In this document: piece by piece, positions 8,860 through 37,826 of the stretch
Layout: each line of letters opens with the position of its first letter
Position numbering within the stretch: the first letter of the stretch is position 1
Origin: Pseudomonadota bacterium
GTDB taxonomy: Bacteria; Pseudomonadota; Alphaproteobacteria; Acetobacterales; Acetobacteraceae
DNA length: 56,312 nucleotides
NCBI GenBank assembly: GCA_021805545.1
Contig: JAJZFB010000055.1
Span: forward strand, 1-56,312
Reading direction: 5' to 3'
Notes under the pieces: model-generated
What the model was told of the DNA's origin: nothing
What the model saw: only the letters and a program-made list of their open reading frames with translations
Database searches by the model: none
Position numbers and translations under genes: made by a program

Positions 8860-10131
8860 TTAGCTGAACCGCGCGAGCAACCCGCCGAAATTGCGGCGTT
8901 GCCAGAGATTCAGCGCGTTGGTGAGCATGTGGAGCTGGGTGCGCGCGGCTTCGCTGGTTTTGAAGCCTGTGTGGAAACGGTCATGCGCGGGGGATAGCCC
9001 GGGGAGCTGGGCGCGGATGATGGGCGGGGCGTCGAGCAGCCAGGCCATGGCCATGGTGGCGATGTAGAGGAACATATGCGTTTGCAATGTTTCCAGCGTG
9101 GCGGCGGCGCCGCCATGGGCGGCGTATTCGCGCAGGAACAGGGTGAGGAGCGCATCCAGTTCAGCGTCGAGCATGTCCGGCTCGGCGGCGCTGAGCGTGC
9201 CCCATAAGGCGTGGGCGATGTTCATTTGGCCAACGCGGCCCCAATCCATCAGGCCGCAGCGCAGCGCGCCGGATTCATCGTGCCAGAACCAGGCATTATC
9301 GAGATTGGCGTTCCAGTGGCACAGAGCGATGAGGCTGGGATCGCTGGTGAAGAAACGCTGGATGGCGTGCTCGTGGGTGAGGAAATGCGGCATGTCTTCG
9401 GCGAGTTGCGCGATGAAGGCTGGGTTTGCGATGTTTTCTGGCAGGAGCTTGGGAAATTCCTTGGCGAAGGTTCCGGTGCGGGCCGCGCGGTTGCGGAGCT
9501 GGCGGGCATCGTACCGGATGGGGTCGCATGCGGCGGCGGGATTATAGGGGAATAGCGTGTTGATGTCTGGGCCGAGCCTGCCAGCGCGGTGCGCGCCCGC
9601 GAGGCGGGCATTGGCGGTGATGACGGCATGGTAGCGGGCAAGCGCGTCCGGCAGCTCGTAATCCAGGCATTTTTCGTGGTGCGGGGCGATGCCGTTATGG
9701 CCGAAGGTGATTGTTTCAGTAATCAGCAGGCCGGTTTGGGATTCGGCGTGGTAGTCGCCGAACATGCAGGCGGGCACGTTGATGGGGAAGCCCGGGCGGC
9801 GGGAGATGGCGGCGAAACGGATTTCCGGGCCAAGCTGGTCGCGGCCGCGGTCGCGGATAGGGTCGTCGAAATCGCGTGAGAATTTGACGAAGAGGCTTTC
9901 GTGCAGGCCCGGGGCAGGATGGGCATAGGCTACGGACAGGAAAAACTTACGCCCAGTACTGCCACCTTTGCATTCTGTAATTTGGTTGATGCGCGTGACC
10001 GCGTTATTGGCGCCCAGCGTGCCCACGGCGCGGAAGGCGGCGGTTAGGAAATCCGCGCCACCTTTTTGCAGGGCTTCGCCATGGGCGGGAATCAGGAGAC
10101 CGGTATTATCGCCCCGCACCCAGCCGCTCAT
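8860..10131 (-). CDS. Aminoglycoside-phosphotransferase-fold (kinase-like) protein with altered catalytic motif
   Basis: 423 aa. The C-lobe shows the APH/choline-kinase fold hallmarks: the catalytic loop CHWNANLDNAWFW (His272, Asn279) and the Mg-binding motif LMDWG (Asp296). In the consensus HxDxxxxN loop the catalytic Asp is replaced by Asn274, so kinase activity is doubtful. Its start overlaps the stop of HyuA by 4 bp, so it is translated as the last gene of the HyuB-HyuA operon. Possibilities: a phosphotransferase using a neighbouring acid, or a pseudokinase that serves the HyuAB complex. A small-molecule kinase of the ecdysteroid/acyl-CoA-dehydrogenase-associated sort is the nearest relative I can suggest. 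Confidence 0.75.
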   Translation of the reverse strand: MSGWVRGDNTGLLIPAHGEALQKGGADFLTAAFRAVGTLGANNAVTRINQITECKGGSTGRKFFLSVAYAHPAPGLHESLFVKFSRDFDDPIRDRGRDQLGPEIRFAAISRRPGFPINVPACMFGDYHAESQTGLLITETITFGHNGIAPHHEKCLDYELPDALARYHAVITANARLAGAHRAGRLGPDINTLFPYNPAAACDPIRYDARQLRNRAARTGTFAKEFPKLLPENIANPAFIAQLAEDMPHFLTHEHAIQRFFTSDPSLIALCHWNANLDNAWFWHDESGALRCGLMDWGRVGQMNIAHALWGTLSAAEPDMLDAELDALLTLFLREYAAHGGAAATLETLQTHMFLYIATMAMAWLLDAPPIIRAQLPGLSPAHDRFHTGFKTSEAARTQLHMLTNALNLWQRRNFGGLLARFS

Positions 10132-12206
10132 GGCAGGCGGGTCAACTCGTAATCGCCTGCATCATCCACCCTTGCCTGCCAGCCGGGATAGACGACGATG
10201 GTGGTAAAAACCTCGTGGATGATGGCCGGGCCGGTGATGATGTGGCCGGGTTTGAGATTGTTGCCGAAAAAAATGGGGGTTTCCGCAAAGCCCTGGCCGA
10301 GATTGGCGCGGCGGGTTTTGGCCGGCGCGGTAGGCTGGGCGGGCGCCTGGAACCCCATGGCCATTGCGGGCGATGGGGTGACAACATGGGTGGCAAGGCG
10401 CACGCCAATGATTTCGGGCAGTTCATGCTCGCGTATATGGTTATATTCGGCGAGATGGCGCTTATTGAACATGGCAAGGGCGCGTTCGCCCAGCGCTTCA
10501 TCCGCGAAGGAAAGATCGTGCAGCGCGCCGTTGGGATGAATGTCGAACGTAAGGGCGAAATTCTGCCCCGCATAACGCATGTTGAGCTGGTAGTTTGCCA
10601 AAATGTGTTCAAGTTTGAAGTGGGCATCGGCGAAGAATTTTTCCGCACGCGTACCAAGCTCATTCCAGAGCGCTTTAAGGCGCGGAATATCGAGCGCGTT
10701 GACCTTGGCAGTGTAGGAGCGTTCTTCATCGATGCTGGGATTGGCAACGAGCGTGCCAAGCGCTGAGAAAGTGGGGGAGGCTTTGGGGACGAGAACGCGG
10801 GTGATGCCGAGATCGTCCGCCTGCACGGCGGCGAAGGCGGGGCCGTTGCCGCCATAGGCGAGCATGGTGAAGTTATGCGGCTCCACGCTGCCCTGGCTGG
10901 CGACGGTGCGGCGCACACCCTGCGTCATGTTGGCGTTGACGATGCGCCAGCAATCGAAGGCGGCATCCTCGGCGGAATAGCCCATTTCATCGCCCAGTTT
11001 CTGGAAGGCTTCCGCAACACCTTCGCGGCTGAGGCTGAAACTGCCGCCGGCGAAGGATTCTTCCGTGGAGAGTATGCCGAGCATGACCAGCGCGTCGGTA
11101 ACCGTGGGCTGAGCGCCGCCTTTGCCATAGGCGATGGGGCCGGGTTTGGCCCCGGCTGAGACCGGGCCAACCTTAAGGGCGCCGCCTTGCACATGGCAGA
11201 TGGAGCCACCGCCCGCGCCGAGCGTTTCCACCTTCACCATCGGCACGCCGATGAGGTAGCGGTGATGCATGCTCCAACCCGCCTCGGCGGGGGCCGTGCC
11301 ATTGATGACCAGCGACATATCGTAGGAGGTGCCGCCGAGATCGACGCAGAGCAGGTTGGGATGACCCTTGGCGGTGCCAACATAAGCGGAACCGGCCACG
11401 CCGCCCACGGGGCCGGAGGCGAGTACGCGGATGGGGGCCCCATCTATGTATTCCTTGGTCATCACGCCGCCATTGGCCTGCATCACGAGGAGCTGGCGGG
11501 GATAGCCGCCTTCCTTCAGGCGGGAAGCCAGACGTTCGATATAGGCGGTGACGGGGGGCGCGATATAGGCGTTGACCACCGTGGTGCTGGTGCGGTCGTA
11601 TTCCGGGCCGCGCGGCAGAACCTGGTGCGAGAGCGAGATGTTGGCGCCCGGAAGCTCCTCGGCAATGATTTCGCCAATACGTTTTTCGTGTGCCGGGTTG
11701 ATGAAGGAAAACAGCAAGGAGACAGCAACGGATTTTACGCCTTGCTTGCGGAGTTTGCGGCAGGCGGCGCGGACGGAGGATTCGTCCAGCGGTTTGTGGA
11801 TGGAACCGTTGAACAGCACGCGCTCGGAAACCGTGAGACGGCGGCGGCGCGGGGTGATTTGCTTGGGCGGGGCCAGGCGGACATCCCAGATGTCTTCCTT
11901 GAAACCACGGCGATATTCGATCTCGTCGCGGAAGCCTTCCGTGGTGATGAGGCCGGTGAGCGCGCCATTCATTTCGATGAGCGTGTTATCAGCCACGGTG
12001 GTGGCGTGGACGCTGGCATCGCATTGGCCCAGGAAATCGCGCAACGGAAGGCCTTCTTTACCAGCCAGTATTTCCAGACCGTTCATCACGCCTATCGAGC
12101 GGTCCTCGGGCGTGGAGAGGTTTTTGTGAACAATGACCTGCGTACCTTTAAGGAGCGCGAAATCGGTGAATGTGCCGCCAATATCGATACCAACGCGATA
12201 ACCCAT
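10128..12206 (-). CDS. Hydantoinase/oxoprolinase family subunit A (HyuA-like)
   Basis: 692 aa. The N-terminus YRVGIDIGGTFTDFALL is the ATP-binding phosphate loop of the actin-like HyuA/5-oxoprolinase A fold; CVDLGGTSYDMSLV and VETLGAGGGSICHV are further family blocks. Family members work with HyuB to hydrolyse hydantoins or 5-oxoproline, or to carboxylate acetone and acetophenone, in all cases with ATP. The gene follows hyuB by 44 bp, with a GGGAG ribosome site before the ATG, and overlaps the kinase-like gene by 4 bp. The sequence does not tell which of these reactions is performed; the nearby oxygenase genes favour a catabolic carboxylase or amidase. Confidence 0.92.
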   Translation of the reverse strand: MGYRVGIDIGGTFTDFALLKGTQVIVHKNLSTPEDRSIGVMNGLEILAGKEGLPLRDFLGQCDASVHATTVADNTLIEMNGALTGLITTEGFRDEIEYRRGFKEDIWDVRLAPPKQITPRRRRLTVSERVLFNGSIHKPLDESSVRAACRKLRKQGVKSVAVSLLFSFINPAHEKRIGEIIAEELPGANISLSHQVLPRGPEYDRTSTTVVNAYIAPPVTAYIERLASRLKEGGYPRQLLVMQANGGVMTKEYIDGAPIRVLASGPVGGVAGSAYVGTAKGHPNLLCVDLGGTSYDMSLVINGTAPAEAGWSMHHRYLIGVPMVKVETLGAGGGSICHVQGGALKVGPVSAGAKPGPIAYGKGGAQPTVTDALVMLGILSTEESFAGGSFSLSREGVAEAFQKLGDEMGYSAEDAAFDCWRIVNANMTQGVRRTVASQGSVEPHNFTMLAYGGNGPAFAAVQADDLGITRVLVPKASPTFSALGTLVANPSIDEERSYTAKVNALDIPRLKALWNELGTRAEKFFADAHFKLEHILANYQLNMRYAGQNFALTFDIHPNGALHDLSFADEALGERALAMFNKRHLAEYNHIREHELPEIIGVRLATHVVTPSPAMAMGFQAPAQPTAPAKTRRANLGQGFAETPIFFGNNLKPGHIITGPAIIHEVFTTIVVYPGWQARVDDAGDYELTRLP

Positions 12207-12250: not shown

Positions 12251-14059
12251 TCAGGCGGCTTTGCGCATTTGCGCGCGCAATTGCTCCGTCGCCGCGTAAT
12301 CGACCGCCAGATCGTAGTCTTCCAGACTGCCGGTAAGGACCACGCCGTAGGCTTCCCGCGCGGCTTTCAGGCTTACATATTCGTCCAGCACGTCTTCCTT
12401 CACCGCATCGGGGTTGCGTGACAGTGCCGGGCCAAAGCCCGCGCCGCCGCCATGCTGGTAGGCGATGGTAGCACCTGCCGGGAGCTGGGCCTGGGCGGTG
12501 CGCTCGATCTTGCGCTCGTTGGGCGAGCCGACCTCGAAATAATTTGTGTATGGAATGGCGTCTTCCCCGCCGCACATGCCGCGCAGCGGGTGGTCGGCGG
12601 AGACCATCCAGGCCACTGCCATGGTAGGGGCGAGAACGGTTTTGACGTTGAGGCTGCCCGGCGCGCCGCGCCATTGGCCTGCGCCGCCGCCATCGGTTTT
12701 CATCTCGCGGCTGACATTGAGGATGGGGAAGCGCATTTCCGCATCCTCGGCTTCCGACAACAAAAGATTGCCGAGGCTGACCGGGCATGAACCCCAGCCA
12801 TCTATGCCTTGCACGGCGGAGGCATCCATGGAGCGGCAATCCACACCCTGGTCCATCCACATCATGCCGCTGGCATCGAACCCCATGACGGCATTGGGCA
12901 TGCCTATTTTGTAGAGCTGCGGCGCGGCGCGCTCTGGCACCACCTGGCTGAGCGCAAGGCACGTGGCTTCGGTAATCTCGCTGGCTGGGTGGAAGGAGCC
13001 AAGCGCGGCGGGCTTGCCCGGCGGCGGCTGGGCGATGCAGCCCGCGGGGATGATGATATCAACAGCGTTGAACAGGCCTTCATTCTTGTCGATAGACGGG
13101 TCGATGGCCGCACCCACCTGGGTCATGACGTAGGAGCGGCTATTGGCGAAGGTGTTCCACACGCCGACGAGATTCTGGCGGTCATCCGTGCCGGTAAGGT
13201 CAACGGTGAGCTGATCGCCCTGCACCGTGCAGGCCACATGCACCTTGATGTCGCGCGTGCCTGCCGTGTCGTGGTCGATGAGCACCGTGCCTTCGTAAAC
13301 GCCATTGGGCCAGGCGGAAACTTCCTCGCGCATGCGCTTCTCGCTATGGGCGATGGCATGGTTGATGGCGGCCTTTACCACATCGGCTCCGTGCTTGCGG
13401 ATCATGCCCTGCAATTTTACCGCCGCCTGCTCCACGCCGCCGATCATGGCGGCGAGGTCGCCGCCGAACGTGGCGAAGCGGTTATTGCGCTCCAGCATGT
13501 GGATGACATCCTTGCGCTTACTGCCACGATGCACGAGTTTGAGGCAGGGGTAGCACACGCCCTCGGTGTAGATGTCCGTTGCCTCCAGCGTGAAGCCGCC
13601 TGGGTCCTTGCCGCCCGTGTCGCCCTGGTGGGCCTGCAGGGTCTGGAACAGGATCAGCTCGCCGGTATCATCGAATACCGGCGCATAGACGCAATAATCG
13701 GGCAGATGGCCGCCGCCATATTCGGGGTCGTTGGAGAGCAGCACGTCGCCAGGGCCGATGTCGTAAGTCTCCATGTTCATCAGCGCCCAGCGCACCATCA
13801 TCTGGTTGACGAAGGTGAGGTGCGGCGTGCCGATGGCGCCCATGGCGAGGCGGCCATGCGCATCGACGATGGCGGCGTTACGCTCGTTGGAGGAGTTGAT
13901 GATGGGCGAGGACGCGGCGCGGCCAAGATGGGTGGCGGCTTCGAAACAGATTGTCTCGAACGCACCCCTAATGATGCTGGCCGTGACGGAATCGATATTT
14001 ACGCCTGTGGGCAGCGGTGGCCGCGCGGCGGCGAGCTTGGCATTCAGTTCGTAAGACAT
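12251..14059 (-). CDS. Hydantoinase/oxoprolinase family subunit B (HyuB-like)
   Basis: 602 aa, the usual HyuB length (500-600). Family blocks seen: GAFETICFEAATHLGRAASSP, LTFVNQMM, PGDVLLSNDPEYGGGHLPDY, QAHQGDTGG and the Gly-rich DGGGAGQWRGAPG near residue 470. It forms the partner of HyuA in an ATP-dependent complex. The ATG at 14059 has a GGGGGAG ribosome site 8 nt upstream and is preferred to the in-frame TTG at 14080. The small gene 14077-14280 precedes it by 17 bp and hyuA follows, giving a four-gene operon with the kinase-like protein. Confidence 0.93.
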   Translation of the reverse strand: MSYELNAKLAAARPPLPTGVNIDSVTASIIRGAFETICFEAATHLGRAASSPIINSSNERNAAIVDAHGRLAMGAIGTPHLTFVNQMMVRWALMNMETYDIGPGDVLLSNDPEYGGGHLPDYCVYAPVFDDTGELILFQTLQAHQGDTGGKDPGGFTLEATDIYTEGVCYPCLKLVHRGSKRKDVIHMLERNNRFATFGGDLAAMIGGVEQAAVKLQGMIRKHGADVVKAAINHAIAHSEKRMREEVSAWPNGVYEGTVLIDHDTAGTRDIKVHVACTVQGDQLTVDLTGTDDRQNLVGVWNTFANSRSYVMTQVGAAIDPSIDKNEGLFNAVDIIIPAGCIAQPPPGKPAALGSFHPASEITEATCLALSQVVPERAAPQLYKIGMPNAVMGFDASGMMWMDQGVDCRSMDASAVQGIDGWGSCPVSLGNLLLSEAEDAEMRFPILNVSREMKTDGGGAGQWRGAPGSLNVKTVLAPTMAVAWMVSADHPLRGMCGGEDAIPYTNYFEVGSPNERKIERTAQAQLPAGATIAYQHGGGAGFGPALSRNPDAVKEDVLDEYVSLKAAREAYGVVLTGSLEDYDLAVDYAATEQLRAQMRKAA

Positions 14060-14076
14060 GGCAGTGACTCCCCCAT

Positions 14077-14280
14077 TCAATGTTCGGTGACGCTGGGGCC
14101 GGCATCGTTGAACAGGAAGCCGGTGGCGGCCTCGTCCGCCGAGGCGGGCATGGCGCTGCCGCCAGGGCGGTAGACGCTGACAACCATGCCGAGATCGAGA
14201 TGGCCACCAGATTGCACGCGCAGTTCGGCACCGGCCAGGTCTCGCTTCTCGTGCTGCTGCTGTCTGGCGTTACGACGCAT
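14077..14280 (-). CDS. Small protein preceding HyuB (unknown)
   Basis: 67 aa, no family recognised. It has a charged, Gln/Arg-rich start (MRRNARQQQHEKRD), then a short strand-rich part (AELRVQSGGHLDLGMVVSVY) and an acidic end. The ATG at 14280 follows a good ribosome site (GGGAG, 6 nt), whereas the TTG two codons upstream does not. It lies 17 bp upstream of HyuB in the same direction and is first in the operon. Acetone and acetophenone carboxylases have small extra subunits beside their Hyu-like ones, so a subunit role is possible, but no Zn-binding Cys motif is visible. Confidence 0.6.
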   Translation of the reverse strand: MRRNARQQQHEKRDLAGAELRVQSGGHLDLGMVVSVYRPGGSAMPASADEAATGFLFNDAGPSVTEH

Positions 14281-14485: not shown

Positions 14486-14803
14486 TTGCTTATGCAAGCT
14501 GAATTTACGCGGGTGGCACGGGTGGAGGAACTGCCGCCAGGGGCCAAGCATGTGGCCGAGATCAACGGCAAAGCGGTTCTGCTATGTAATTCAAACGGCA
14601 AGGTTTTTGCCATCTCGAACATATGCTCCCATGCCGAGGAAAAGCTGGATTGCGGGCGCATGGGGAATGGCTGGATTGCCTGCCCCATCCATGGCGCGCG
14701 CTTTGACCTGGCCACGGGCAAGGCCAAGAATCCACCCGCCAAACAGCCAATTGCGGTGTATGCGGTGCGGCTGGAAGAGGGCTGGATAGAGGTGGCGGCG
14801 TGA
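14486..14803 (+). CDS. Rieske-type [2Fe-2S] ferredoxin (non-haem iron oxygenase ferredoxin component)
   Basis: 105 aa. Complete Rieske motif: CSH near residue 48 and CPIHG about 17 residues later (C-x-H...C-x2-H), ligating a [2Fe-2S] cluster. Size and layout match BphF/NdoA-type ferredoxins that carry electrons to ring-hydroxylating oxygenases; the likely partner is the oxygenase alpha subunit at 23.6 kb. The TTG at 14486 is used because GGAGG sits 7 nt upstream; ATG 14492 is the alternative (13-nt spacing). It is divergent from the Hyu operon, so the 14281-14485 interval should hold both promoters. Confidence 0.9.
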   Translation: MLMQAEFTRVARVEELPPGAKHVAEINGKAVLLCNSNGKVFAISNICSHAEEKLDCGRMGNGWIACPIHGARFDLATGKAKNPPAKQPIAVYAVRLEEGWIEVAA

Positions 14804-14957
14804 GTGCCGGGCAGCGTATCGTGAAAGCGATTTTTTGCCTTTTACCTTGTTCGTGCGGCTTGGCTGGCCTATGCTGTGCTGCCCGCGAAGCTGCCCGCGG
14901 CACAAGGCGCCAAGAGACCCAAGAGATAAAGCGTTAAGGGCGGAAGGAGACCGGCAT

Positions 14958-15944
14958 TTGCCTGTACTGGCTTTTGACATGACAAGCGCGAACCATGAGC
15001 ACCGGCGCCATGAGTTCCGTGGCAAGAACAATAGCGATTATTATGAGGGCGAGCTTCGCGCCATCTCGCCGCGCGATGTTGACATGCGCATCGAGAAAAG
15101 CGTGGCCGGGGAATATTGCATCTACAAGCTCACCTCGCGTTCGGGCCTCGCCTTCCGCCGTTCCTGGGCGCATATACGGTCCGACAAGACGAATGTGACC
15201 GTGTTCTGGTTTGTCCGGCGCGGGCGGATTACCGTGTCCTCCCCCGGCGTGAAGCACGACATTAGCCCGCAGGAATGTGCCGTGACGCGCTCTTGCCGTC
15301 CCTTCAACATGGAGCTGACCCCGGATAAAAACGGCTTGCTGGAAGTGATGCATGTTGTCGTGCCCTCACACGAACTACATGCCATTATCAGCGACGGGCT
15401 GGAAGCAGGCCGGCCTTTTCCGGCCTCGAAGGGCGATTTATTTCTGGCTGAACGGATTTTTACGATGCTGTTCGACGAAGATGACCAGATCGATGCTGAT
15501 ATTTCCGAGCAGCTTGTGCGCACCTTGCTGACCGGGCTTGGTAAATCCATCGCCAAATTCAGCGGGCCACCAGCGCAGCGCAGCTCGATTGCTGAAAAAC
15601 GTGTTGCAGACATTAAAAATTGTATCAACCGGCATATCGCCAACCCGGATTTGAATGCGCGCATGGTGGCGGAGCGCTGTGGCATTTCGTTGCGGTATCT
15701 GTGCCATATTCTCAAAAAGAACAACCTCTCCTTCTCCACGCTCATTTGGGAGCGGCGTATAGAAATGGCGGAGGCCTGGCTGAAAGACACTGCGATGCAA
15801 CATCATCTGGTATGCGAGATTGCGTATCTGGTGGGATTCAAGAGCAGCGCGCATTTCAGCCGCATGTTCAAGGCCCGTTTTGGCGTGGCGCCGCGCGAAT
15901 ACCGCGAGGCACATATGGGCAAGCCAGCCGAGCCGGCTTTGTGA
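14958..15944 (+). CDS. AraC-family transcriptional regulator
   Basis: 328 aa. The C-terminal ~100 residues hold two helix-turn-helix units: the first around MVAERCGISLRYLCHILKKN, the second around CEIAYLVGFKSSAHFSRMFKARFG, followed by the family end motif PREYR. The N-terminal ~200 residues resemble the AraC_binding_2 (cupin-like) sensor found in FeaR/AlkS-type regulators of aromatic catabolism. The start is taken at TTG 14958, where a GGAAGGAG site lies 8 nt upstream; ATG 14979 is in frame but has no ribosome site at the right distance. Embedded in the oxygenase region, so probably its activator. Confidence 0.88.
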   Translation: MPVLAFDMTSANHEHRRHEFRGKNNSDYYEGELRAISPRDVDMRIEKSVAGEYCIYKLTSRSGLAFRRSWAHIRSDKTNVTVFWFVRRGRITVSSPGVKHDISPQECAVTRSCRPFNMELTPDKNGLLEVMHVVVPSHELHAIISDGLEAGRPFPASKGDLFLAERIFTMLFDEDDQIDADISEQLVRTLLTGLGKSIAKFSGPPAQRSSIAEKRVADIKNCINRHIANPDLNARMVAERCGISLRYLCHILKKNNLSFSTLIWERRIEMAEAWLKDTAMQHHLVCEIAYLVGFKSSAHFSRMFKARFGVAPREYREAHMGKPAEPAL

Positions 15945-16077
15945 GACCACCGCGGCGCGGATAAAACGCCCGAGTGCATGTTATGATGACTGCGGGTGCA
16001 ATGCGGCCGCTGCGCGGTTTACCTTTGCCATGCAAGGTGGCAAAGGCCGTGCACAGATCATGTTCCGGGGAAAAACC

Positions 16078-16509
16078 ATGGAGAGTCTGCAGCGCCTGCA
16101 GGCCATTGAGGAGATAAGGCTGCTCAAGGCGCGCTATTTCCGCTTCATGGATACCAAGCAATGGGCCGCGCTGGCGGATTTGTTCATGCCGGATTTACAG
16201 GTGCTGAGGCCGGATGGCGGGGTTTACCTGCAAGGCGGTGCGGAATTTGCCGCGAGCCTGAAGCATTCGCTGGAGCATAGCGTATCTGTGCATCAGGGGT
16301 TTATGGGAGAAATTGAGATTCTCGGCGCGGAAAATGCTACCGGCATCTGGGCCATGCAGGATGTGATTGAGTGGCACGGCAAGCACCCGGTGCAGGGGTG
16401 GAAGTCGATTATCGGCCGCGGCCATTACCATGAGACCTACCGCAAGCATGAGCGCGCCTGGCGCATTGCCAGCCTGTGCCTGATTAGGCTGCGGCTGGAT
16501 ACCGCTTGA
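16078..16509 (+). CDS. SnoaL/NTF2-like polyketide cyclase-dehydratase fold protein
   Basis: 143 aa. The start LQRLQAIEEIRLLKARYFRFMDTKQWAALADLF is the typical SnoaL-like/NTF2 opening (helices 1-2 with the R-Y-F-x3-D motif), and the C-terminal strand block RGHYHETYRKHERAWRIASL closes the cone-shaped fold. In catabolic clusters such proteins act as dehydratases, isomerases or small oxygenase subunits; residues do not decide between them. The ATG at 16078 follows GGGGA; the open frame upstream overlaps the AraC gene. The stop falls just before the next gene's start, so the two are probably coupled. Confidence 0.82.
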   Translation: MESLQRLQAIEEIRLLKARYFRFMDTKQWAALADLFMPDLQVLRPDGGVYLQGGAEFAASLKHSLEHSVSVHQGFMGEIEILGAENATGIWAMQDVIEWHGKHPVQGWKSIIGRGHYHETYRKHERAWRIASLCLIRLRLDTA

Positions 16510-16526
16510 GACTATTTTATGTGGGA

Positions 16527-18182: not shown

Positions 18183-18332
18183 GACGTGGCTTGATCCGCG
18201 CCGCCACGGGACCGTAAACCGGCCAGTTGCGAATGGCAGGCGCGGCTGGCCGGCACTAGAATGGCACATGAGCCCGCAAGGGACGCAGCAGCGCAACCAC
18301 AAGATTGGACGGGAACGGATTTGGGCATTGTG

Positions 18333-30204: not shown

Positions 30205-30222
30205 ATTTGAGGAGTGAAAATA

Positions 30223-31177: not shown

Positions 31178-31204
31178 CGATCAGGGGCTAATACCCCCTG
31201 ATCG
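31178..31204. terminator. Bidirectional terminator-like hairpin
   Basis: Perfect 10-bp arms CGATCAGGGG (31178-31187) and CCCCTGATCG (31195-31204), 7-nt loop. It lies between the convergent SDR and hydroxyisobutyrate dehydrogenase genes; the latter's TAG stop (31188-31190) is inside the loop. No long T-tract, so strength is uncertain. Confidence 0.65.
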
Positions 31205-32072
31205 TATTGATGATGCCGGAGAAATCCACGCCACCCTGCCCGGATTCAACAAAATTTTTGTAGATTTCCGTTGCATGTTTCCCAAGCGCGGTAGCGGCGC
31301 CGGTTGCGGCGGCGGCTTCCTGGCTCAACAGCAAATCCTTCAGCATAAGGGCCGCCGCAAAGCCCGGCTTGTACCCGTTATTGGCAGGGCTGCCGGGCAC
31401 CGGCCCCGGCACAGGGCAATAGCTGGTGAGAGACCAGCATTGGCCAGAGGCGGTGGAGGCAACATCGTATAGTGCCTGATGCGAGAGGCCGGTTTTTTCC
31501 GCCAGCACAAAGGCTTCGCCCACGGCAATCATCGAGATGCCGAGGATCATGTTGTTGCAGATTTTCGCGGCCTGCCCGGCGCCAGAGCCGCCACAATGGA
31601 CGATCTTCTTGCCCATGAGTTCCAGCACCGGCTTGGCGCGGGCGAAATCGCTTTCCTCGCCGCCTGCCATGAATGTGAGCGTGCCCGCCGCCGCGCCGCC
31701 AACACCGCCGGAAACCGGGGCGTCGAGCTGCTTCATGCCCGCCGCAATAGCCAAGGCGTTGGCCTGGCGCGCGCTCTCGATGTCGATTGTGGAGCTGTCC
31801 ATGAATAAAGTGCCGGGGTGTGCGGCCTGGAGGATGCCAGTTTGGTAAAGCTCAAGCACCAGCTTTCCGTTTGGCAGCATGGTGATGACGATGCCGGCGC
31901 CCTTCACGGCCTCGGCCGCGCTGGCCATTACCGTAATACCGGCCTTGGCCGCGGCCTCGCGGGCGGCGGGCACAACATCGTAACCCTGCACCTTATGCCC
32001 GGCCTTCACGAGGTTGCTGGCCATGGGCAGGCCCATATTGCCGAGGCCGATAAACCCGATCGCTTCGCTCAT
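31188..32072 (-). CDS. mmsB: 3-hydroxyisobutyrate dehydrogenase family protein
   Basis: 294 aa. N-terminal Rossmann motif IGFIGLGNMGLPMASNL, substrate loop DAPVSGGVGGAAAGTL, and catalytic Lys block GGSGAGQAAKICNNM, all hallmark positions of beta-hydroxyacid dehydrogenases. The valine-pathway enzyme oxidises 3-hydroxyisobutyrate to methylmalonate semialdehyde. It sits 14 bp after an acyl-CoA dehydrogenase resembling isobutyryl-CoA dehydrogenase, which supports the assignment. GGTGGAG precedes the ATG. Confidence 0.88.
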   Translation of the reverse strand: MSEAIGFIGLGNMGLPMASNLVKAGHKVQGYDVVPAAREAAAKAGITVMASAAEAVKGAGIVITMLPNGKLVLELYQTGILQAAHPGTLFMDSSTIDIESARQANALAIAAGMKQLDAPVSGGVGGAAAGTLTFMAGGEESDFARAKPVLELMGKKIVHCGGSGAGQAAKICNNMILGISMIAVGEAFVLAEKTGLSHQALYDVASTASGQCWSLTSYCPVPGPVPGSPANNGYKPGFAAALMLKDLLLSQEAAAATGAATALGKHATEIYKNFVESGQGGVDFSGIINTIRGY

Positions 32073-32086: not shown

Positions 32087-33238
32087 CTATTGCGGCGCCA
32101 GCAGGCCGCGCGCGATGATGACGCGCATAATCTCGTTCGTGCCTTCGAGAATCTGGTGCACGCGCAAATCGCGCACGATTTTCTCGATGCCGTAATCGGC
32201 CAGATAGCCGTAACCGCCGAGCAGTTGCAGCGCCTGGTTGGCCACATCGAACCCTGTATCGGTAACAAAACGCTTAGCCATGGCGCAGAGTTTGGTGGCG
32301 TCAGGCGCTTTGGCATCCAGCGCCGTAGCCGCCCGCCATAGCAGCAGGCGCGCGGCTTCCAGTTCGGTCGCCATATCCGCCAGGCGGAATTGCAACGCCT
32401 GAAACTGCCCTATGGGCTGGCCAAACGCCTTGCGCTCTCCCACATAGGCGATGGCTTTATCCAAAGCCGCCTGGGCGCCGCCGAGCGAGGCCGCGGCGAT
32501 GTTGATGCGCCCGCCATCCAGCCCCGCCATGGCGAATTTGAAGCCCATGCCCTCCTCACCAAGCAGATTGGCCACGGGCACGCGCACATCCTGGAAGACC
32601 ACCTGCCGTGTTGGCTGGGCGTTCCAGCCCATTTTATGCTCATTGGCGCCGAAGCTCACACCTTCCATGCTCTTCTCGATGAGCAGCGTGGAAATGCCTT
32701 TTGGCCCTTCGCCGCCCGTGCGGACCATAACGGCGTAAAGCTCCGCCGTGCCCGCGCCCGAGATGAATTGCTTTGAACCATTTACAATATAATGCCCGCC
32801 ATCCCGCACCGCGCGCGTGCGCAACGCCGCCGCGTCGGACCCGGCAGCGGGTTCGGTAAGGCAGTAGCTGGCAAAATGCTCCATGCCGCAAAGTTGCGGC
32901 AAATATTTGCGGCGCTGCTCCTCATTGCCATAGAGGTCGATCATGCCCGCGACCATGTTATGAATGGAGATATAAGCAGCTATGGTGGGGCAGCCCGTAG
33001 CCAGCGCTTCTATAATCAGCGCCGCATCGAGGCGCGAAAGGCCGGAACCGCCATGGGCCTCGTTCACGTAAATACCGCCCATGCCCAGGGCGGCGGCGGC
33101 ACGCATTGTCTCAACGGGAAAATATTTATCGCGGTCCCACGCCACGGCAAATGGCGCCAGATGCTCATTGGCGAATTCGCGCGCCATATCGCGTATGGCG
33201 GCCTGCTCGTCAGCCAGTTCAAACGACAGACCGCTCAT
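32087..33238 (-). CDS. Acyl-CoA dehydrogenase, isobutyryl-CoA dehydrogenase-like
   Basis: 383 aa. FAD/substrate motif YCLTEPAAGSDAAAL, FISGAG, and the C-terminal LEGTNEIMR holding the catalytic Glu in the position used by short-chain and isobutyryl-CoA dehydrogenases. LGGYGYLADYGIEKIVRDLRVHQI is the usual helix before it. Oxidises a short branched acyl-CoA; the neighbouring mmsB suggests isobutyryl-CoA. ATG 33238 is preceded by GGGAGGG. Confidence 0.92.
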   Translation of the reverse strand: MSGLSFELADEQAAIRDMAREFANEHLAPFAVAWDRDKYFPVETMRAAAALGMGGIYVNEAHGGSGLSRLDAALIIEALATGCPTIAAYISIHNMVAGMIDLYGNEEQRRKYLPQLCGMEHFASYCLTEPAAGSDAAALRTRAVRDGGHYIVNGSKQFISGAGTAELYAVMVRTGGEGPKGISTLLIEKSMEGVSFGANEHKMGWNAQPTRQVVFQDVRVPVANLLGEEGMGFKFAMAGLDGGRINIAAASLGGAQAALDKAIAYVGERKAFGQPIGQFQALQFRLADMATELEAARLLLWRAATALDAKAPDATKLCAMAKRFVTDTGFDVANQALQLLGGYGYLADYGIEKIVRDLRVHQILEGTNEIMRVIIARGLLAPQ

Positions 33239-33342: not shown

Positions 33343-34206
33343 TCATGGGCGGCCCAAAAATTCCAGGATCATCGGTGCCAGCAGCGGCCAGCGCTCGAAC
33401 CGGCCGCGGCCTGGCTCATTGGGGATTTTGGAGCAGTTATTCCATTCCTGGTCGGGCCAGGGTGGCTCCACAAGCTGGGCGTTGGGCAGCAGGGCTGCCG
33501 TCTGTTCGCTGGCCTCGCGCGTGTGGGAAAGATCGCTCTTGCCACTGCGCAGCACAATGGCCGGCATGGTCATGCGCGTGAATTGATCCGCCGAAATGCC
33601 CGGCACGGGCGAGGTGCGGGAATAGGCATAGCCCTCGGCCCAAAGCTGCATACGGGCGATAAAGGCATCTGGGTCCCATTGCAGAATCAGCTCGCGGTTA
33701 CGCGGGTTGCGGGCAATCTGGTCAGCAAAACCGGGCAATGCCGCCACCGCCTCCATCCCCCCGCGAGACGCCGCCACGGCGGCATCGGCACAGTAATAAC
33801 TGGCAAGCTGCGCCAAAGAGATTGGTCCGCCGCTAATCCACCAGATAAAGAGCTTGCTCACGCGCTCGGGCGCCCGCGCCGCCGCCATGAGCGAGATGCG
33901 TGAACCAGCCGAGCCGCCAACAAGGGCAAAACGCCGCAGGCCCAGCGCCTCGGTAAGGCCCACCAGCGTATCGGCATGCAGGGCGGATTCGCTGACGCCT
34001 TCAAAACTTATATCAGAGGCACCACAATTCGGGCGGTCCCAGGAGAGCACGCGGTAGCCCCCCTCCACCAGCACCGCCGCCAGTTGCGGCAGGCCTGGCG
34101 TATCGCGCGGGTAACGGCCGCCAGGGGTGAGAATAACAACGGGCGATCGTTCGTCTCCGAAAAACTCATAATCAATTTCAATTCCGCCCACATTTTGGCG
34201 TGCCAT
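33343..34206 (-). CDS. Alpha/beta hydrolase
   Basis: 287 aa. Oxyanion region VILTPGGRYP, DRPNCGASD after strand 4, and nucleophile elbow LVGGSAGSR (GxSxG Ser). An acid residue candidate is in LRSGKSDLSH near residue 228. The family includes C-C bond hydrolases (meta-cleavage products), esterases and lactonases. GGGAG ribosome site before ATG 34206; divergent from the IclR regulator, 180 bp apart. Co-directional with the acyl-CoA dehydrogenase, 104 bp upstream of it. Confidence 0.88.
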   Translation of the reverse strand: MARQNVGGIEIDYEFFGDERSPVVILTPGGRYPRDTPGLPQLAAVLVEGGYRVLSWDRPNCGASDISFEGVSESALHADTLVGLTEALGLRRFALVGGSAGSRISLMAAARAPERVSKLFIWWISGGPISLAQLASYYCADAAVAASRGGMEAVAALPGFADQIARNPRNRELILQWDPDAFIARMQLWAEGYAYSRTSPVPGISADQFTRMTMPAIVLRSGKSDLSHTREASEQTAALLPNAQLVEPPWPDQEWNNCSKIPNEPGRGRFERWPLLAPMILEFLGRP

Positions 34207-34385: not shown

Positions 34386-35129
34386 ATGGCGGTCAAGCGC
34401 AGCCTGAGTGCGAGCCGGATGCTGGCGGTGTTCGAGCTTGTGGCGAAGCTGCAACCCGTGGGGGTGAGCGTGCTGGCGCGCGAGCTGGATGCCGACAAAT
34501 CAGCCGTTCAGCGCGATTTGATGACGCTCTCCGATGCGGGCTGGATTCACGCCGTGCCTGGCTTGCGCGGGCAATGGGAACTGACCCTGCACGCCCTCTC
34601 ACTCGCCCGCCCCCCCCATAGCACAGATAGCTTGCGTAACAGGCTGCGCCCAATGATGGAGCGGCTGCATAAAGCCACGGGCGAAACTGTTTACCTCAAC
34701 CTGCCCTACCAGAACCATTTTGTGGTGGTGGATGCGCTGGAGAGCCAGCAATTGCTGCGCGTGGTGCCCTCCATTGGCATGAGCGTGCCCATGGCGGGTA
34801 GTGCCACGGCGCGCGTGTACCTGGCCTTTATGCCGCTACCCGTGCAAGAGGCGCTGATTGGCGCTGCGGCGGCAGCAGCCCGGCAGGAGGATTTTGCCGC
34901 CACACGCCAGCGCGGGTACGCGGTAAACGATGGCGATTTGCTGCCCGGCTCAATGGCCATCGCCGCCCCTGTATTCACCAGCCATAACCACCCAGCCGGC
35001 GTGCTGGTGGTGGTGGGGCCAAGCGAACGTATACCGCCTGAGCGCCAGCACGAGATTGGCGTGGCCCTGCGCGAGGCCGGGCGCGGCGGCCTGGACGCCG
35101 CCGCCGTCCCGCCCGTTCTGGCGGGCTGA
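34386..35129 (+). CDS. IclR-family transcriptional regulator
   Basis: 247 aa. N-terminal winged helix (SRMLAVFELVAKLQPVGVSVLARELDADKSAVQRDLMTLSDAGW) followed by the IclR effector domain (ETVYLNLPYQNHFVVVDALES, GSATARVYLAFMP). IclR proteins often control aromatic and terpenoid catabolism. Divergent from the alpha/beta hydrolase and 128 bp upstream of the second P450, so either may be its target. An AGAGGGG site precedes ATG 34386. Confidence 0.92.
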   Translation: MAVKRSLSASRMLAVFELVAKLQPVGVSVLARELDADKSAVQRDLMTLSDAGWIHAVPGLRGQWELTLHALSLARPPHSTDSLRNRLRPMMERLHKATGETVYLNLPYQNHFVVVDALESQQLLRVVPSIGMSVPMAGSATARVYLAFMPLPVQEALIGAAAAAARQEDFAATRQRGYAVNDGDLLPGSMAIAAPVFTSHNHPAGVLVVVGPSERIPPERQHEIGVALREAGRGGLDAAAVPPVLAG

Positions 35130-35172: not shown

Positions 35173-35202
35173 TTGACGCCGGTCATCCAGTCTGTTTATG
35201 AT
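35173..35202 (+). promoter_or_regulatory. Candidate sigma70 promoter of P450-ferredoxin operon
   Basis: TTGACG (35173-35178) and TATGAT (35197-35202) with an 18-bp spacer, 55 bp before the P450 ATG. The strongest sigma70-like match I noticed in the window. Its -10 overlaps the palindrome at 35199-35215. Confidence 0.6.
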
Positions 35203-35215
35203 ATACACTATATCA
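35199..35215. promoter_or_regulatory. Candidate repressor operator (17-bp perfect palindrome)
   Basis: TGATATA-CAC-TATATCA, perfect 7-bp arms around a 3-bp spacer, overlapping the -10 and the expected start of transcription. Position and size suit a dimeric repressor; the TetR protein at 37.2 kb and the IclR protein at 34.4 kb are the nearest candidates. Confidence 0.55.
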
Positions 35216-35257
35216 CAAAACAAGCCCCGCCCGCATCCAGCTTCGGAGACGCATCGC

Positions 35258-36799
35258 ATGAATGCCGTAACCAGCCCGGGGGTCCATTGGGATCCCTACG
35301 ACCCCAAATATTTCGCCAACCCCTATCCGGCCTTCAACCGGCTGCGTGAGGAAGCACCGCTCTATTATAACGGGCAATATGATTTTTATGCCGTGAGCCG
35401 GTACGAGGATGTGGAGCGCGGCCTGTTCGACCGCGATACATTTATTTCCGGGCGTGGCGGCATTCTTGAAATTATCAAACAGAATGTGCCCATTCCCAAA
35501 GGCGTGTTCATATTCGAAGACCCGCCCCTGCACACCATGCACCGCAGCCTGCTGACGCGCGTGTTCACACCTAAAAAAATGAACGCGCTGGAACCGCAAA
35601 TCCGCGCTTTTTGCGCCAAGGCGCTGGACCCGCTGGTGGAAGGCGGACGCTTCAACTTCATCGATGATCTGGGCGCGGAAATGCCCTTGCGCGTCATCGG
35701 CATGCTGCTTGGCATTCCCGAGGAAGACCTGAAGAGCGTGCAGCACGAGGCAAATGAGAAGCTGCGCACCGATCCGGGCAAACCGAAGGACTTCACCGGT
35801 CATCAATTCGTGGGCGAAGGGTTCGAGGATTATCTCGACTGGCGCGTGAAGCATCCATCGGATGATTTGATGACAGAGCTTCTCAATGCTGAATTTACCG
35901 ACGAAACCGGCACAATCCGCAAGCTGACACGCGAGGAGGTGCTGCTGTTCCTCAGCATTCTGGCAGGTGCTGGCAATGAAACAACAAACCGCCTGATTGG
36001 CTGGACCGGCAAGGTGCTGGCCGAGCACCCGGACCAGCGCCGGCAGATTTACGAAAACCGCGCGCTCATCCCGCAAGCCATCGAGGAGTTGCTGCGCTTT
36101 GAGCCACCCGGCCCCTCCGTAGGCCGGTACGTGGCGAAGGATACCGAATTCCACGGGCAAAAACTGCCTCAGGGCAGCGCCATCCTCTTTCTTGTTGGCG
36201 GCGCCAACCGCGATCCGCGCAAATTCACCAACCCGGATATGTTCGACATCCACCGTCCGCGCGTGCCGCATCTCACCTTCGGCTACGGCTTCCATTCCTG
36301 CCTTGGCAACGCGCTGGCGCGCATCGAGGGCCGCGTGGCGCTGGATGAACTGCTCAACCGCTTTCCTGAATGGGATGTGGACCTTGAGAACGCGCACCTT
36401 TCCTCCACCTCTACCGTGCGCGGGTGGGAGACGCTGCCCGCCTATACGCCCAAGGCGGGCAAGGCCAAACCCATTGCCGCCGCCGTGCCCGTGGCAAACC
36501 AGCCACCCGCGGGCGAGCGCTGGAAAATGGTGCTGAAAACGCCGATGGGACCGCAGGAAATGGTGATGACCATGCACCGCGATGGCAACCGCTTTACCGG
36601 GCGCATAGACAGCCCCATGGGCGGTGAGGATATTGCCGAAGGCAAGGTCGATGGCGAAAAGCTAAGCTGGACCATGAACGTAACAAAACCGGCGAAAATC
36701 AAGCTGAGTTTCGAGGTGACGCAAAACGGAGATGCGCTCACCGGCCATGCCAAGCTCGGCATGTTCGGCAAATCAGCGCTCACTGGCGAGCGCATCTAA
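35258..36799 (+). CDS. Cytochrome P450 with extra C-terminal beta-rich domain
   Basis: 513 aa, about 90 longer than usual. P450 core to about residue 400: I-helix AGAGNETTN, EELLR, haem loop FGYGFHSCLGNALAR with axial Cys348. After a Pro/Ala-rich linker (about 400-420) a separate domain runs from W422 to the end: WKMVLKTPMGPQEMVMTMHR ... FTGRIDSPMG ... GKVDGEKLSWTMNVTKP ... LTGHAKLGMFG. Its alternating strands and Gly turns look like a small lipocalin-type barrel, a type I also associate with stand-alone ~100-aa proteins. GGAG lies 9 nt before ATG 35258. The ferredoxin gene follows by 12 bp. Hydroxylation substrate unknown. Confidence 0.92.
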   Translation: MNAVTSPGVHWDPYDPKYFANPYPAFNRLREEAPLYYNGQYDFYAVSRYEDVERGLFDRDTFISGRGGILEIIKQNVPIPKGVFIFEDPPLHTMHRSLLTRVFTPKKMNALEPQIRAFCAKALDPLVEGGRFNFIDDLGAEMPLRVIGMLLGIPEEDLKSVQHEANEKLRTDPGKPKDFTGHQFVGEGFEDYLDWRVKHPSDDLMTELLNAEFTDETGTIRKLTREEVLLFLSILAGAGNETTNRLIGWTGKVLAEHPDQRRQIYENRALIPQAIEELLRFEPPGPSVGRYVAKDTEFHGQKLPQGSAILFLVGGANRDPRKFTNPDMFDIHRPRVPHLTFGYGFHSCLGNALARIEGRVALDELLNRFPEWDVDLENAHLSSTSTVRGWETLPAYTPKAGKAKPIAAAVPVANQPPAGERWKMVLKTPMGPQEMVMTMHRDGNRFTGRIDSPMGGEDIAEGKVDGEKLSWTMNVTKPAKIKLSFEVTQNGDALTGHAKLGMFGKSALTGERI

Positions 36800-36811
36800 A
36801 ACCGGGGCGGC

Positions 36812-37129
36812 ATGGTCAAAATTACCTACATCACCTTTTCCGGCAACGCGCATGTGGTGGATGTCCCGCCAGGCGAGACGCTTATGCGCGGGGCACGGGA
36901 TAATAATATCCCCGGCATAGATGCCGATTGCGGCGGTGCCTGTGTGTGCGGGACATGCCATGTTTACATAGCCCCGGATTGGCGGGCGAAGCTGGGCAAA
37001 CGGACGGAGATCGAGGAAGCAACCATCGAATTTTCAAGCGATGTAAAAGAGAATAGCCGCCTTGCCTGCCAGATTACCGTTTGCGCGGAAATGGATGGTC
37101 TGGTTGTGCATATGCCCGAGACACAATAG
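36812..37129 (+). CDS. [2Fe-2S] ferredoxin, adrenodoxin type, second copy
   Basis: 105 aa. Cluster loop ADCGGACVCGTCHVYI (C-x5-C-x2-C) and fourth Cys in RLACQI. TEIEEATIEF replaces the usual acidic docking helix sequence, so its partner choice may differ from the first ferredoxin. Encoded 12 bp after the fused P450, which it should reduce. No reductase gene is nearby. Confidence 0.93.
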   Translation: MVKITYITFSGNAHVVDVPPGETLMRGARDNNIPGIDADCGGACVCGTCHVYIAPDWRAKLGKRTEIEEATIEFSSDVKENSRLACQITVCAEMDGLVVHMPETQ

Positions 37130-37154
37130 GCTGGGCTAAGCCGGATTCAGAAAT

Positions 37155-37201
37155 TCGGATCGCTCACAAAGCGAGCGCGTCTCAAGTCATCGCGCTCTAC
37201 C
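37155..37201 (+). repeat. Partial copy of 123-bp dispersed repeat, at tetR 3' end
   Basis: About 45 bp match the right part of the full element at 37856-37978 in the same orientation (core TCGCTCACAAAGCGAGCG, then TCTCAAGTCATCGCGCTCTA). The tetR stop codon (37197-37199) lies in its last bases. Just before it, AGCCGGATTCAG is the reverse complement of another part of the element. Confidence 0.8.
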
Positions 37202-37826
37202 GGACTGTTTTGGCCTTATGCGGGTGTTGCTCCAGCAGGCCCACGCGCGGCACATCGGCCAGGCTGGGTTCCACCACCAGCCGGTCGAGTGTCTGGGCCA
37301 TTTTCTCGATGCTTGCGGGCTCTTTCTGTTCCAGCCACCAGGCGAGAATTTCCAGCGTGGCGGCAACTGAAAACGCCACGCGCAAATCGCTCGGCGGCCA
37401 GGAATCCACGGGTGTTTCCGCGGCGGCCAGTTGGCGCATCTGGCGGATGAACTCGGTCTTCACCGTGCCTGCCGCGCCGCCCGTCAATAAAGCCGCCCAC
37501 AAGGTTTTATGCGCCCATACATATTCAAACATTGTGCGCGAGGTAAGCTGCAAATCGGCGCTATGCAGCAATGGCAGCGTTACCGCCGTAAGCCCGCCAA
37601 TCTGGTCGGCGGCCAGATCGTTCAGTAGCGCTTCCTTGCTGGGATAATGGCGGAAAAATGTGGCATAGCCGATTTTCGCCATGGCGGCGATCTCTCGGAT
37701 CGTCACCTGCTCAAACGGCTTCTGTTCCAGCAGGCTGATAAGCGTATTACGCAATGCAACACGCGAGCGCGCGGCCCGGGCATCGCCCGAAACTGGCTGA
37801 ACTCCGCTTTGCGCCTTCTCATTCAC
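37197..37826 (-). CDS. TetR-family transcriptional regulator
   Basis: 209 aa. N-terminal helix-turn-helix LEQKPFEQVTIREIAAMAKIGYATFFRHYPSKEALL (given here for outline: T-I-R-E-I-A ... G-x-x-Y-A-T-F-F-R-H-Y) matches TetR; the rest is the all-helical ligand domain. Convergent with the P450-ferredoxin operon and likely its regulator. The last residues and the TAG stop lie in a copy of a dispersed repeat, and a full copy starts 30 bp upstream of the gene, so repeats flank it on both sides. Confidence 0.9.
   Translation of the reverse strand: MNEKAQSGVQPVSGDARAARSRVALRNTLISLLEQKPFEQVTIREIAAMAKIGYATFFRHYPSKEALLNDLAADQIGGLTAVTLPLLHSADLQLTSRTMFEYVWAHKTLWAALLTGGAAGTVKTEFIRQMRQLAAAETPVDSWPPSDLRVAFSVAATLEILAWWLEQKEPASIEKMAQTLDRLVVEPSLADVPRVGLLEQHPHKAKTVR

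What the first reader, a model, noticed from the sequence alone, without database searches (positions are those of the whole stretch)
8860..37826. Large undescribed catabolic region with two P450-ferredoxin pairs, Rieske oxygenase, HyuAB and fused IorAB
About 29 kb combine oxygenases, several dehydrogenases, a KstD-like flavoprotein, an amidohydrolase, 2-oxoacid oxidation and CoA steps under AraC, IclR and TetR regulators. I know no named pathway with this exact set. Hydroxylation, ketone formation, ring desaturation, hydrolytic opening, 2-oxoacid decarboxylation and acyl-CoA oxidation form a plausible sequence for a cyclic hydrophobic compound. Substrate is inference.
Basis: partly seen in the sequence, partly recalled or inferred. 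Interest (0 to 1): 0.8.

Follow-up and report, generated by a model that had tools for sequence, protein, structure and literature searches.

The report
Conserved catabolic island, substrate unknown
A real set of genes for breaking down an unknown ring-shaped, probably greasy compound, built around an oxygenase and a hydrolase that turn up together in distantly related bacteria; the compound is not identified, and the host lacks three marker genes of the usual steroid route.

Summary
All named genes are present in open frames. The block APH-like to IclR (8.9-35.1 kb) recurs gene for gene in two congeners; P450b-Fdx2 in one of them.

Rieske orthologues sit in 53 named loci. Within 10 kb lie the amidohydrolase in 45, IorAB in 28, VOC in 28, P450a in 25, KstD in 18; in 27 paralogue control loci 0, 0, 2, 0, 0. 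Two downstream versions replace each other: IorAB+VOC (22 of 41 long loci) or CoA-transferase III (18), both in 1, neither in 2.

Parts resemble steroid and oestrogen catabolism: KstD keeps its tyrosines; IorAB belongs to the family of EdcC. But HsaD, HsaA and an IpdA-like protein, markers of the 9,10-seco route, were not found in this genome; 25 of 44 carriers lack both HsaA and IpdA.

Best reading: a cassette for a cyclic terpenoid-like ketone, in which Rieske oxygenase and amidohydrolase open the molecule to an acid captured as CoA ester. Substrate and reaction order are inferred. HIBADH+ACAD look like ordinary valine genes.

The parts
8860..10131 (-). APH-like (small-molecule kinase fold) protein, 423 aa
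   Evidence: No Pfam or NCBIfam family at E<=0.001; AlphaFold model (pLDDT 75) matches APH and choline kinases, best E 2e-5. In 4 of 53 loci and both congeners.
10128..12206 (-). HyuA, hydantoinase/oxoprolinase family
   Evidence: PF01968, PF05378; CapA model 561 bits, cut-off 1000, not reached. In 5 of 53 loci.
12251..14080 (-). HyuB
   Evidence: PF02538 371 bits. In 6 of 53 loci.
14486..14803 (+).
   Evidence: PF00355 70.8 bits; C47/H49/C66/H69 in 26 of 26; 30 of 53 loci, 1 of 27 controls.
14835..15944 (+). AraC-family regulator
   Evidence: PF12833; 87 and 90% in two congeners.
15820..16509 (+). SnoaL-like protein (true start probably downstream; frame overlaps AraC)
   Evidence: PF13577; 3 of 53 loci.
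16506..17483 (+). DUF7064/DUF7065 protein
   Evidence: Weak Pfam hits; 84 and 81% in two congeners.
17493..18182 (+). CPT-like small-molecule kinase
   Evidence: PF07931 73.6 bits; 3 of 53 loci.
18261..19148 (+). SDR1, short-chain dehydrogenase
   Evidence: PF13561; 14 of 53 loci.
19159..20457 (+). P450a, probably served by the [2Fe-2S] ferredoxin Fdx1
   Evidence: PF00067; haem Cys433 and Thr323 (numbered in the frame from 18994) in 26 of 26; 25 of 53 loci, 0 of 27 controls.
20470..21321 (+). SDR2
   Evidence: PF13561; 24 of 53 loci.
21318..21647 (+). Fdx1, [2Fe-2S] ferredoxin
   Evidence: PF00111; 23 of 53 loci.
21700..22167 (-).
   Evidence: PF00903 68.9 bits; H7/E67/H91/E138 in 27 of 27; in each of the 22 long loci that hold IorAB.
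22354..23631 (+). AmdH, amidohydrolase of the Xaa-Pro dipeptidase / Cc2672 group with a binuclear-metal ligand set
   Evidence: PF01979; NF051886 198 bits, below its cut-off 500; H137, H139, K259, H300, H320, D397 (frame from 22135) in 40 of 40; 45 of 53 loci, 0 of 27 controls.
23647..25059 (+). Rieske oxygenase large subunit; no small subunit seen in the block
   Evidence: PF00355, PF00848; cluster ligands and iron ligands in 53 of 53.
25069..28485 (+). IorAB, fused 2-oxoacid:ferredoxin oxidoreductase
   Evidence: NF009589 1414 bits, cut-off 816; 28 of 53 loci, 0 of 27 controls.
28501..30204 (+). KstD-like flavoprotein dehydrogenase
   Evidence: 439 bits to 7p18, 3-oxosteroid 1-dehydrogenase; Y113, Y360, Y536, G540 in 14 of 14 full-length members; 18 of 53 loci.
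30214..31167 (+). SDR3
   Evidence: NF004845 314 bits, below cut-off 414; 3 of 53 loci.
31188..32072 (-). 3-hydroxyisobutyrate dehydrogenase; probably valine/isobutyrate catabolism, membership doubtful
   Evidence: TIGR01692 402 bits, cut-off 291.6; the only copy over the cut-off in this genome.
32087..33238 (-). Acyl-CoA dehydrogenase; membership doubtful
   Evidence: PF00441; stands near HIBADH in three congener loci without the cassette.
33343..34206 (-). alpha/beta hydrolase
   Evidence: PF00561; 5 of 53 loci.
34386..35129 (+). IclR-family regulator
   Evidence: PF01614; 4 of 53 loci.
35198..36799 (+). P450b with a C-terminal domain of unknown family; accessory
   Evidence: PF00067 over residues 219-391; in one of two compared congeners, 0 of 53 loci.
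36812..37129 (+). Fdx2, [2Fe-2S] ferredoxin; accessory
   Evidence: PF00111; in one of two compared congeners.
37197..37826 (-). TetR-family regulator
   Evidence: PF00440; in both compared congeners.

Best explanation
A dedicated, patchily distributed (probably horizontally passed) catabolic cassette for a cyclic, probably terpenoid-like compound. Shown: the frames are open; ligand and catalytic positions of Rieske oxygenase, amidohydrolase, KstD, P450a, VOC and Rieske ferredoxin are conserved; the set recurs together across families; the genome gave no match to three markers of the 9,10-seco steroid route. Inferred: P450a with Fdx1 hydroxylates the substrate, SDRs make a ketone, KstD desaturates next to it, the Rieske oxygenase fed by its Rieske ferredoxin oxygenates the enone, the amidohydrolase hydrolyses the product (ring or lactone opening) to an acid that after VOC isomerisation is a 2-oxo acid, and IorAB decarboxylates it oxidatively to an acyl-CoA. 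In a second version of the cassette a family III CoA-transferase takes the place of IorAB+VOC.
For: Co-occurrence against controls; gene-for-gene block in two congeners; conserved residues; IorAB above its subfamily cut-off, and EdcC of the same family is needed for normal growth on oestradiol, its mutant accumulating a by-product of the ring-A cleavage product (PMC7793797, passages and section 6); IorAB/CoA-transferase exclusivity, 22 and 18 of 41, both in 1, at least 4 changes on the Rieske tree; IpdA-like, HsaA and HsaD not found in this genome.
Against: No substrate or transcript data. Characterised or named relatives of the amidohydrolase are dipeptidases and amide hydrolases, and HyuAB resembles lactamases, so an amide or lactam is possible. 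P450a was seen in 1 of 19 gammaproteobacterial loci and KstD in 6 of 19. 8 of 53 loci lack AmdH in range; in Aestuariicella it lies on another contig. 19 of 44 carriers match HsaA or the IpdA-like protein, so some may use the cassette on steroids. HIBADH+ACAD may not belong.
Confidence: 0.5

Rival explanations
1. A steroid or bile-salt side-chain module: AmdH and Rieske act on the side chain, as may hold for the amidohydrolase and monooxygenase of Caenibius tardaugens and Nov2c228 of Sphingobium Chol11.
For: C. tardaugens bsd I holds an amidohydrolase (about 21-fold induced by cholate), a monooxygenase of unknown role, two ACAD subunits, a CoA ligase and a MaoC protein (PMC12882949 passages); several gammaproteobacterial loci here run AmdH, Rieske, Rieske ferredoxin, ACAD, ACAD, then MaoC and CoA ligase. 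KstD present. A hydroxylation that may serve side-chain degradation in Chol11 is ascribed to Nov2c228 (PMC12175502 passages). All 14 genomes with a strong IpdA-like match also match HsaA, so about a third of the carriers probably degrade steroids.
Against: The window genome matched none of HsaD, the IpdA-like protein and HsaA; 25 of 44 carriers match neither HsaA nor the IpdA-like protein. No ACAD pair, MaoC or CoA ligase in the window block (one single ACAD). I had no sequences of the C. tardaugens or Chol11 proteins; the paper on Chol11 side-chain degradation was not held.
Confidence: 0.2
2. Catabolism of a nitrogen-containing ring compound (alkaloid, amide or lactam), with AmdH and HyuAB doing amide hydrolysis.
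For: AmdH falls with Xaa-Pro dipeptidase, arginine carboxypeptidase and ochratoxinase; HyuA scores best with caprolactamase. The Rieske enzyme has Glu before the first iron histidine in 53 of 53, a trait I recall from carnitine-type oxygenases.
Against: HyuAB is in only 5-6 of 53 loci; the curated models of those enzymes are far below cut-off; KstD and PimC-like ACADs fit carbocycles better (inference).
Confidence: 0.2
3. A mosaic of unrelated catabolic genes on a variable island, only AmdH-Rieske-IorAB-VOC being a unit.
For: SnoaL, DUF7064, CPT, SDR3, HIBADH, ACAD are in 3 of 53 loci only, those of close relatives; HIBADH+ACAD occur elsewhere in congeners.
Against: P450a, SDR2, Fdx1, KstD and SDR1 recur in 14-25 of 53 loci in changing order and in 0 of 27 controls.
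Confidence: 0.1

Closest known systems
edc cluster, oestrogen 4,5-seco pathway, Caenibius tardaugens (EdcA P450, EdcB, VOC protein, EdcC)
   Same: P450, a VOC-domain protein next to an IOR-family 2-oxoacid oxidoreductase, an ACAD (PMC7793797 section 6)
   Different: No amidohydrolase, hydantoinase or Rieske gene in that description; the window block has no separate EdcB-like gene among those scanned, and its VOC protein keeps four ligand positions
9,10-seco/HIP steroid catabolism
   Same: KstD with conserved tyrosines; SDRs; a Rieske oxygenase as a class
   Different: The Rieske protein matches PF00848 and has its own Rieske ferredoxin; IpdA-like, HsaA and HsaD not found in the genome
Bile-salt side-chain cluster bsd I of C. 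tardaugens / Sphingobium Chol11
   Same: Amidohydrolase next to a monooxygenase (PMC12882949 passages)
   Different: ACAD pair, MaoC and CoA ligase absent from the window block; sequence identity not testable here
Cyclohexanecarboxylate aromatisation (ChcA/B/C)
   Same: P450, ferredoxin, SDR, KstD-like desaturase (pathway recalled; Chc model names)
   Different: ChcC1 347 of 1000, ChcC2 356 of 900, ChcB2 177.5 of 350 bits

Membership tests
9,10-seco/HIP steroid catabolism | Delta1-3-ketosteroid dehydrogenase with catalytic Tyr/Gly | tested here: met
   Y113, Y360, Y536, G540 align with 7p18; 14 of 14 full-length members; that these are the catalytic residues is recalled
9,10-seco/HIP steroid catabolism | IpdA (C/D-ring CoA hydrolase subunit) | tested here: not met
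   IpdA-like query from L225, so named by my reading (no NCBIfam match at E<=1e-20); no match at E<=1e-20 in G000; 15 of 44 genomes matched
9,10-seco/HIP steroid catabolism | HsaA oxygenase | tested here: not met
   NF045629: no match at E<=1e-60 in G000; 18 of 44 genomes matched, 0 over the cut-off, 0 of 14 control genomes
9,10-seco/HIP steroid catabolism | HsaD meta-cleavage hydrolase | tested here: not met
   NF045632: no match at E<=1e-30 in G000; 22 of 42 genomes matched, 0 over the cut-off
9,10-seco/HIP steroid catabolism | KshA | not tested
   The cluster's Rieske protein matched PF00355 and PF00848 only; the genome was not searched for KshA
Oestrogen 4,5-seco (edc) | IOR-family 2-oxoacid oxidoreductase | tested here: met
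   NF009589 1414 bits, cut-off 816; identity to EdcC itself not measured
Oestrogen 4,5-seco (edc) | Extradiol dioxygenase EdcB | tested here: inconclusive
   VOC protein has H7/E67/H91/E138 in 27 of 27, a four-ligand pattern I recall from glyoxalase I; fold hits mix glyoxalases, epimerases and L-DOPA dioxygenase
Bile-salt side-chain cluster (C. tardaugens bsd I) | Amidohydrolase and monooxygenase orthologous to EGO55_16305/16310 | not testable with these tools
   The protein sequences were not in hand; only text passages
Bile-salt side-chain cluster (C. tardaugens bsd I) | ACAD pair, CoA ligase and MaoC beside the pair | tested here: not met
   No CoA ligase or MaoC and only one ACAD among the proteins scanned from 8.9-37.8 kb; such genes are in 7 to 11 of 41 long loci elsewhere
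Caprolactamase CapAB | CapA and CapB model cut-offs | tested here: not met
   561 and 233 bits against 1000 each
3-hydroxyisobutyrate dehydrogenase | TIGR01692 cut-off | tested here: met
   402 bits, cut-off 291.6
Fused IorAB subfamily | NF009589 cut-off | tested here: met
   1414 bits, cut-off 816

The most novel reading that the evidence does not exclude
A so far undescribed way of opening a cyclic terpenoid-like skeleton: a ferredoxin-fed Rieske oxygenase and a binuclear metal amidohydrolase together cleave it without an extradiol dioxygenase, and the acid formed is captured by one of two interchangeable modules, oxidative decarboxylation (IorAB+VOC) or CoA transfer. 25 of 44 carriers examined match neither HsaA nor the IpdA-like steroid marker.
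Probability: 0.35. Interest if true: 0.75.

Novelty: new variant of a known kind. Interest (0 to 1): 0.52.

Why it matters
Amidohydrolases are not known to me as partners of Rieske oxygenases in ring catabolism. A set of this size, found in Acetobacterales, Sphingomonadales, Nevskiales and others in changing order, points to a natural substrate whose breakdown genes I could not find assigned in the ten paper searches I made. Cultured carriers (Nitrospirillum iridis, Novosphingobium and Solimonas species, Sphingobium scionense) make it directly testable.

Tried and rejected
Classical steroid catabolism for this host: rejected on HsaD, the IpdA-like protein and HsaA, though KshA was not searched. 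The VOC protein as a plain extradiol dioxygenase: disfavoured by the invariant fourth position E67, not excluded. HIBADH+ACAD as dedicated isobutyryl-CoA steps of an isopropyl or gem-dimethyl substrate: attractive, but the pair also stands away from the cassette in congeners. Tryptophan or indole catabolism because of the 'indolepyruvate' name: considered; KstD and P450 do not fit (inference). Plasmid collection: the best-identity Rieske hit was 68% over 67% of the query, in Sphingobium WTD-1 beside an IS256 transposase, no substrate clue. Literature: ten searches; none of their listings, as far as titles, abstract beginnings and the passages I opened show, describes this set. Of papers I saw passages of PMC8399759, PMC8540908, PMC12882949, PMC7793797, PMC12507874 and PMC12175502, and the whole of section 6 of PMC7793797; none was read whole. 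The library holds open-licence papers only, so absence there is weak evidence. An even sample of the phylum found the Rieske gene (E<=1e-150) in 0 of 397 other genomes, so the cassette is rare.

Full report
What is there. The window is one whole contig of a 2.79 Mb, 96-contig genome rated 97.75% complete. Two small genes were missed: a Rieske-type ferredoxin at 14486-14803 and a VOC/glyoxalase-family protein at 21700-22167.

Conservation inside the genus. In two congeners, G445 and G446, the run from the APH-like gene to IclR is present gene for gene at 68-90% identity, with TetR and OprB to the right; P450b and Fdx2 are in G445 and not in the G446 stretch. Fragments lie in G448 and G449. Of 30 other congeners sampled, 4 have IorAB at 71% or more, one of them over about half its length; of the 13 other congeners listed in an earlier draw none has AmdH at E<=1e-60. 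The cassette is thus patchy within the genus.

Conservation beyond it. A scan of named genomes with a two-sequence Rieske alignment kept 80 loci; 53 are 63-94% identical to the window's Rieske protein, the next is 52%. The pattern scan is a lower bound. By contig names the 53 loci come from 49 genomes, since four give two loci each; L072 has the contig length of G080:C196, which was used to build the alignment, so it is not an independent find. With thresholds of 45% identity and 40% coverage (38% identity for the small Rieske ferredoxin), the 53 loci hold AmdH in 45, Rieske ferredoxin in 30, IorAB in 28, VOC in 28, P450a in 25, SDR2 in 24, Fdx1 in 23, CoA-transferase III in 20, KstD in 18, SDR1 in 14, HyuB in 6, HyuA in 5, P450b in 0. 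The 27 loci around paralogous Rieske genes (44-52%) serve as control: VOC in 2, Rieske ferredoxin in 1, each of the others just named 0. Loci reach at most 10 kb on each side and 12 of the 53 are under 15 kb, so absences are soft. Gene order and strand vary between lineages, so the co-occurrence is not just descent of one frozen stretch. The core is not uniform: in 19 gammaproteobacterial loci (by title) AmdH is in 13, IorAB in 17, KstD in 6, P450a in 1. The cassette is rare: in an even sample of the phylum 0 of 397 other genomes carry the Rieske gene at E<=1e-150, and 6 of 397 genomes of the family of Sphingobium scionense, that genome included, have AmdH at 62% or more.

Two versions. Of 41 loci of at least 15 kb, 22 hold IorAB, 18 hold the CoA-transferase, one (L059, Nitrospirillum iridis) both and two (L079, L101) neither; Fisher p is 1.9e-8 without correction for kinship. 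All 22 with IorAB also hold VOC; one locus (L073) has VOC without IorAB. On a quick Rieske tree with 48 labelled rows (29 of type I with the window, 19 of type II; types assigned by me, L059 counted as I, L073 as II) at least 4 changes of type are needed (a quick search, 17 of 54 inner branches open). IorAB+VOC and CoA-transferase are therefore likely alternative ways to take up the same kind of product; that is inference.

Residues. In members long enough to align, the Rieske cluster ligands C116, H118, C137, H140 and the positions H238, H243, D421 are kept in 53 of 53; the residue before the YH-motif of the iron site is Glu (E235) in 53 of 53. AmdH keeps H137, H139, K259, H300, H320, D397 in 40 of 40. 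KstD keeps Y113, Y360, Y536, G540 in 14 of 14, and these align with 7p18. P450a keeps its haem cysteine in 26 of 26. The VOC protein keeps H7, E67, H91, E138 in 27 of 27. Which residues are catalytic in these families, and the name AcmB for 7p18, I take from recall. A model of the VOC protein (pLDDT 83) matches glyoxalases, methylmalonyl-CoA epimerases and L-DOPA dioxygenase alike, so the fold does not decide its reaction.

Is it steroid catabolism? A cluster with HsaA-like (399 of 450 bits) and HsaC-like (314 of 450) genes lies elsewhere in Aestuariicella hydrocarbonica (L225); its IpdA-like protein is so named by my reading, NCBIfam gave no match. That protein finds matches in 15 of 44 carriers, 14 of them strong and one (G406) at 33% identity. 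The HsaA model matches 18 of the same 44, among them all 14 strong ones, none over the cut-off and none in 14 control genomes. The HsaD model matches 22 of 42 (all within the 44), none over the cut-off. The window genome matches none of the three. The genomes of L056, L057, L059 and L062 match none of the three either; that of L083 matches HsaD weakly (108 bits) and the other two not. 25 of 44 carriers match neither HsaA nor the IpdA-like protein. Incomplete assemblies could hide a gene. Against my reading, about a third of the carriers probably do degrade steroids.

Literature. In C. tardaugens a mutant of the IOR-family EdcC grows poorly on oestradiol and accumulates a by-product of the ring-A meta-cleavage product (PMC7793797, passages and section 6). 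In the same species an amidohydrolase next to a monooxygenase of unknown role is induced by cholate (PMC12882949, passages). The bile-acid review calls side-chain degradation in Chol11 so far unknown and gives gene tables (PMC8399759, passages). A paper that may bear on this (PMC8552905) was not held. None of my ten searches listed a description of the present set that I could recognise.

Mechanism. Most likely P450a/Fdx1 and the SDRs make a ring ketone, KstD desaturates beside it, the Rieske oxygenase inserts oxygen, AmdH hydrolyses, and IorAB turns the resulting 2-oxo acid into an acyl-CoA. No step is shown for this locus. HyuAB could open a lactam or act on a ketone; it is optional. HIBADH+ACAD match ordinary valine catabolism: of 31 genus genomes 21 have a HIBADH over the cut-off, and in three congener loci without other cassette genes the pair stands within 1.1 kb.

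Verdict. The substrate remains open. I rate it a new variant of a known kind.

Noticed in passing
36488-36796: P450b carries a C-terminal extension of about 100 residues without a Pfam match; a similar stretch (48%) stands in a separate small frame of Solimonas locus L080 at 3408-3899.
   Followed up: partly
8860-10131: The APH-like protein has Asn (N274) where kinases of this fold, as I recall, have the catalytic Asp of the HGD motif; it may be inactive or altered. N274 is invariant in the 4 aligned members.
   Followed up: partly
8860-10131 and 17493-18182; L107:8773-9909: Two unrelated small-molecule kinase families (APH-like, CPT-like) sit in one catabolic block, and locus L107 carries a gene matching APH and the ecdysteroid-kinase-like family.
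   Followed up: no
L195:1664-5098: In congener G449 IorAB lies on the strand opposite to the Rieske fragment and KstD on either side of it, unlike in the window; an inversion or an assembly error.
   Followed up: no
L137:18746-25711: Sphingobium WTD-1 plasmid carries a partial Rieske orthologue (68% over 67% of the query) beside an IS256 transposase, with an amidohydrolase gene 3.4 kb on that is not among the AmdH hits.
   Followed up: no
40045-43950: ThiC directly followed by a squalene-hopene cyclase, right of the block.
   Followed up: no
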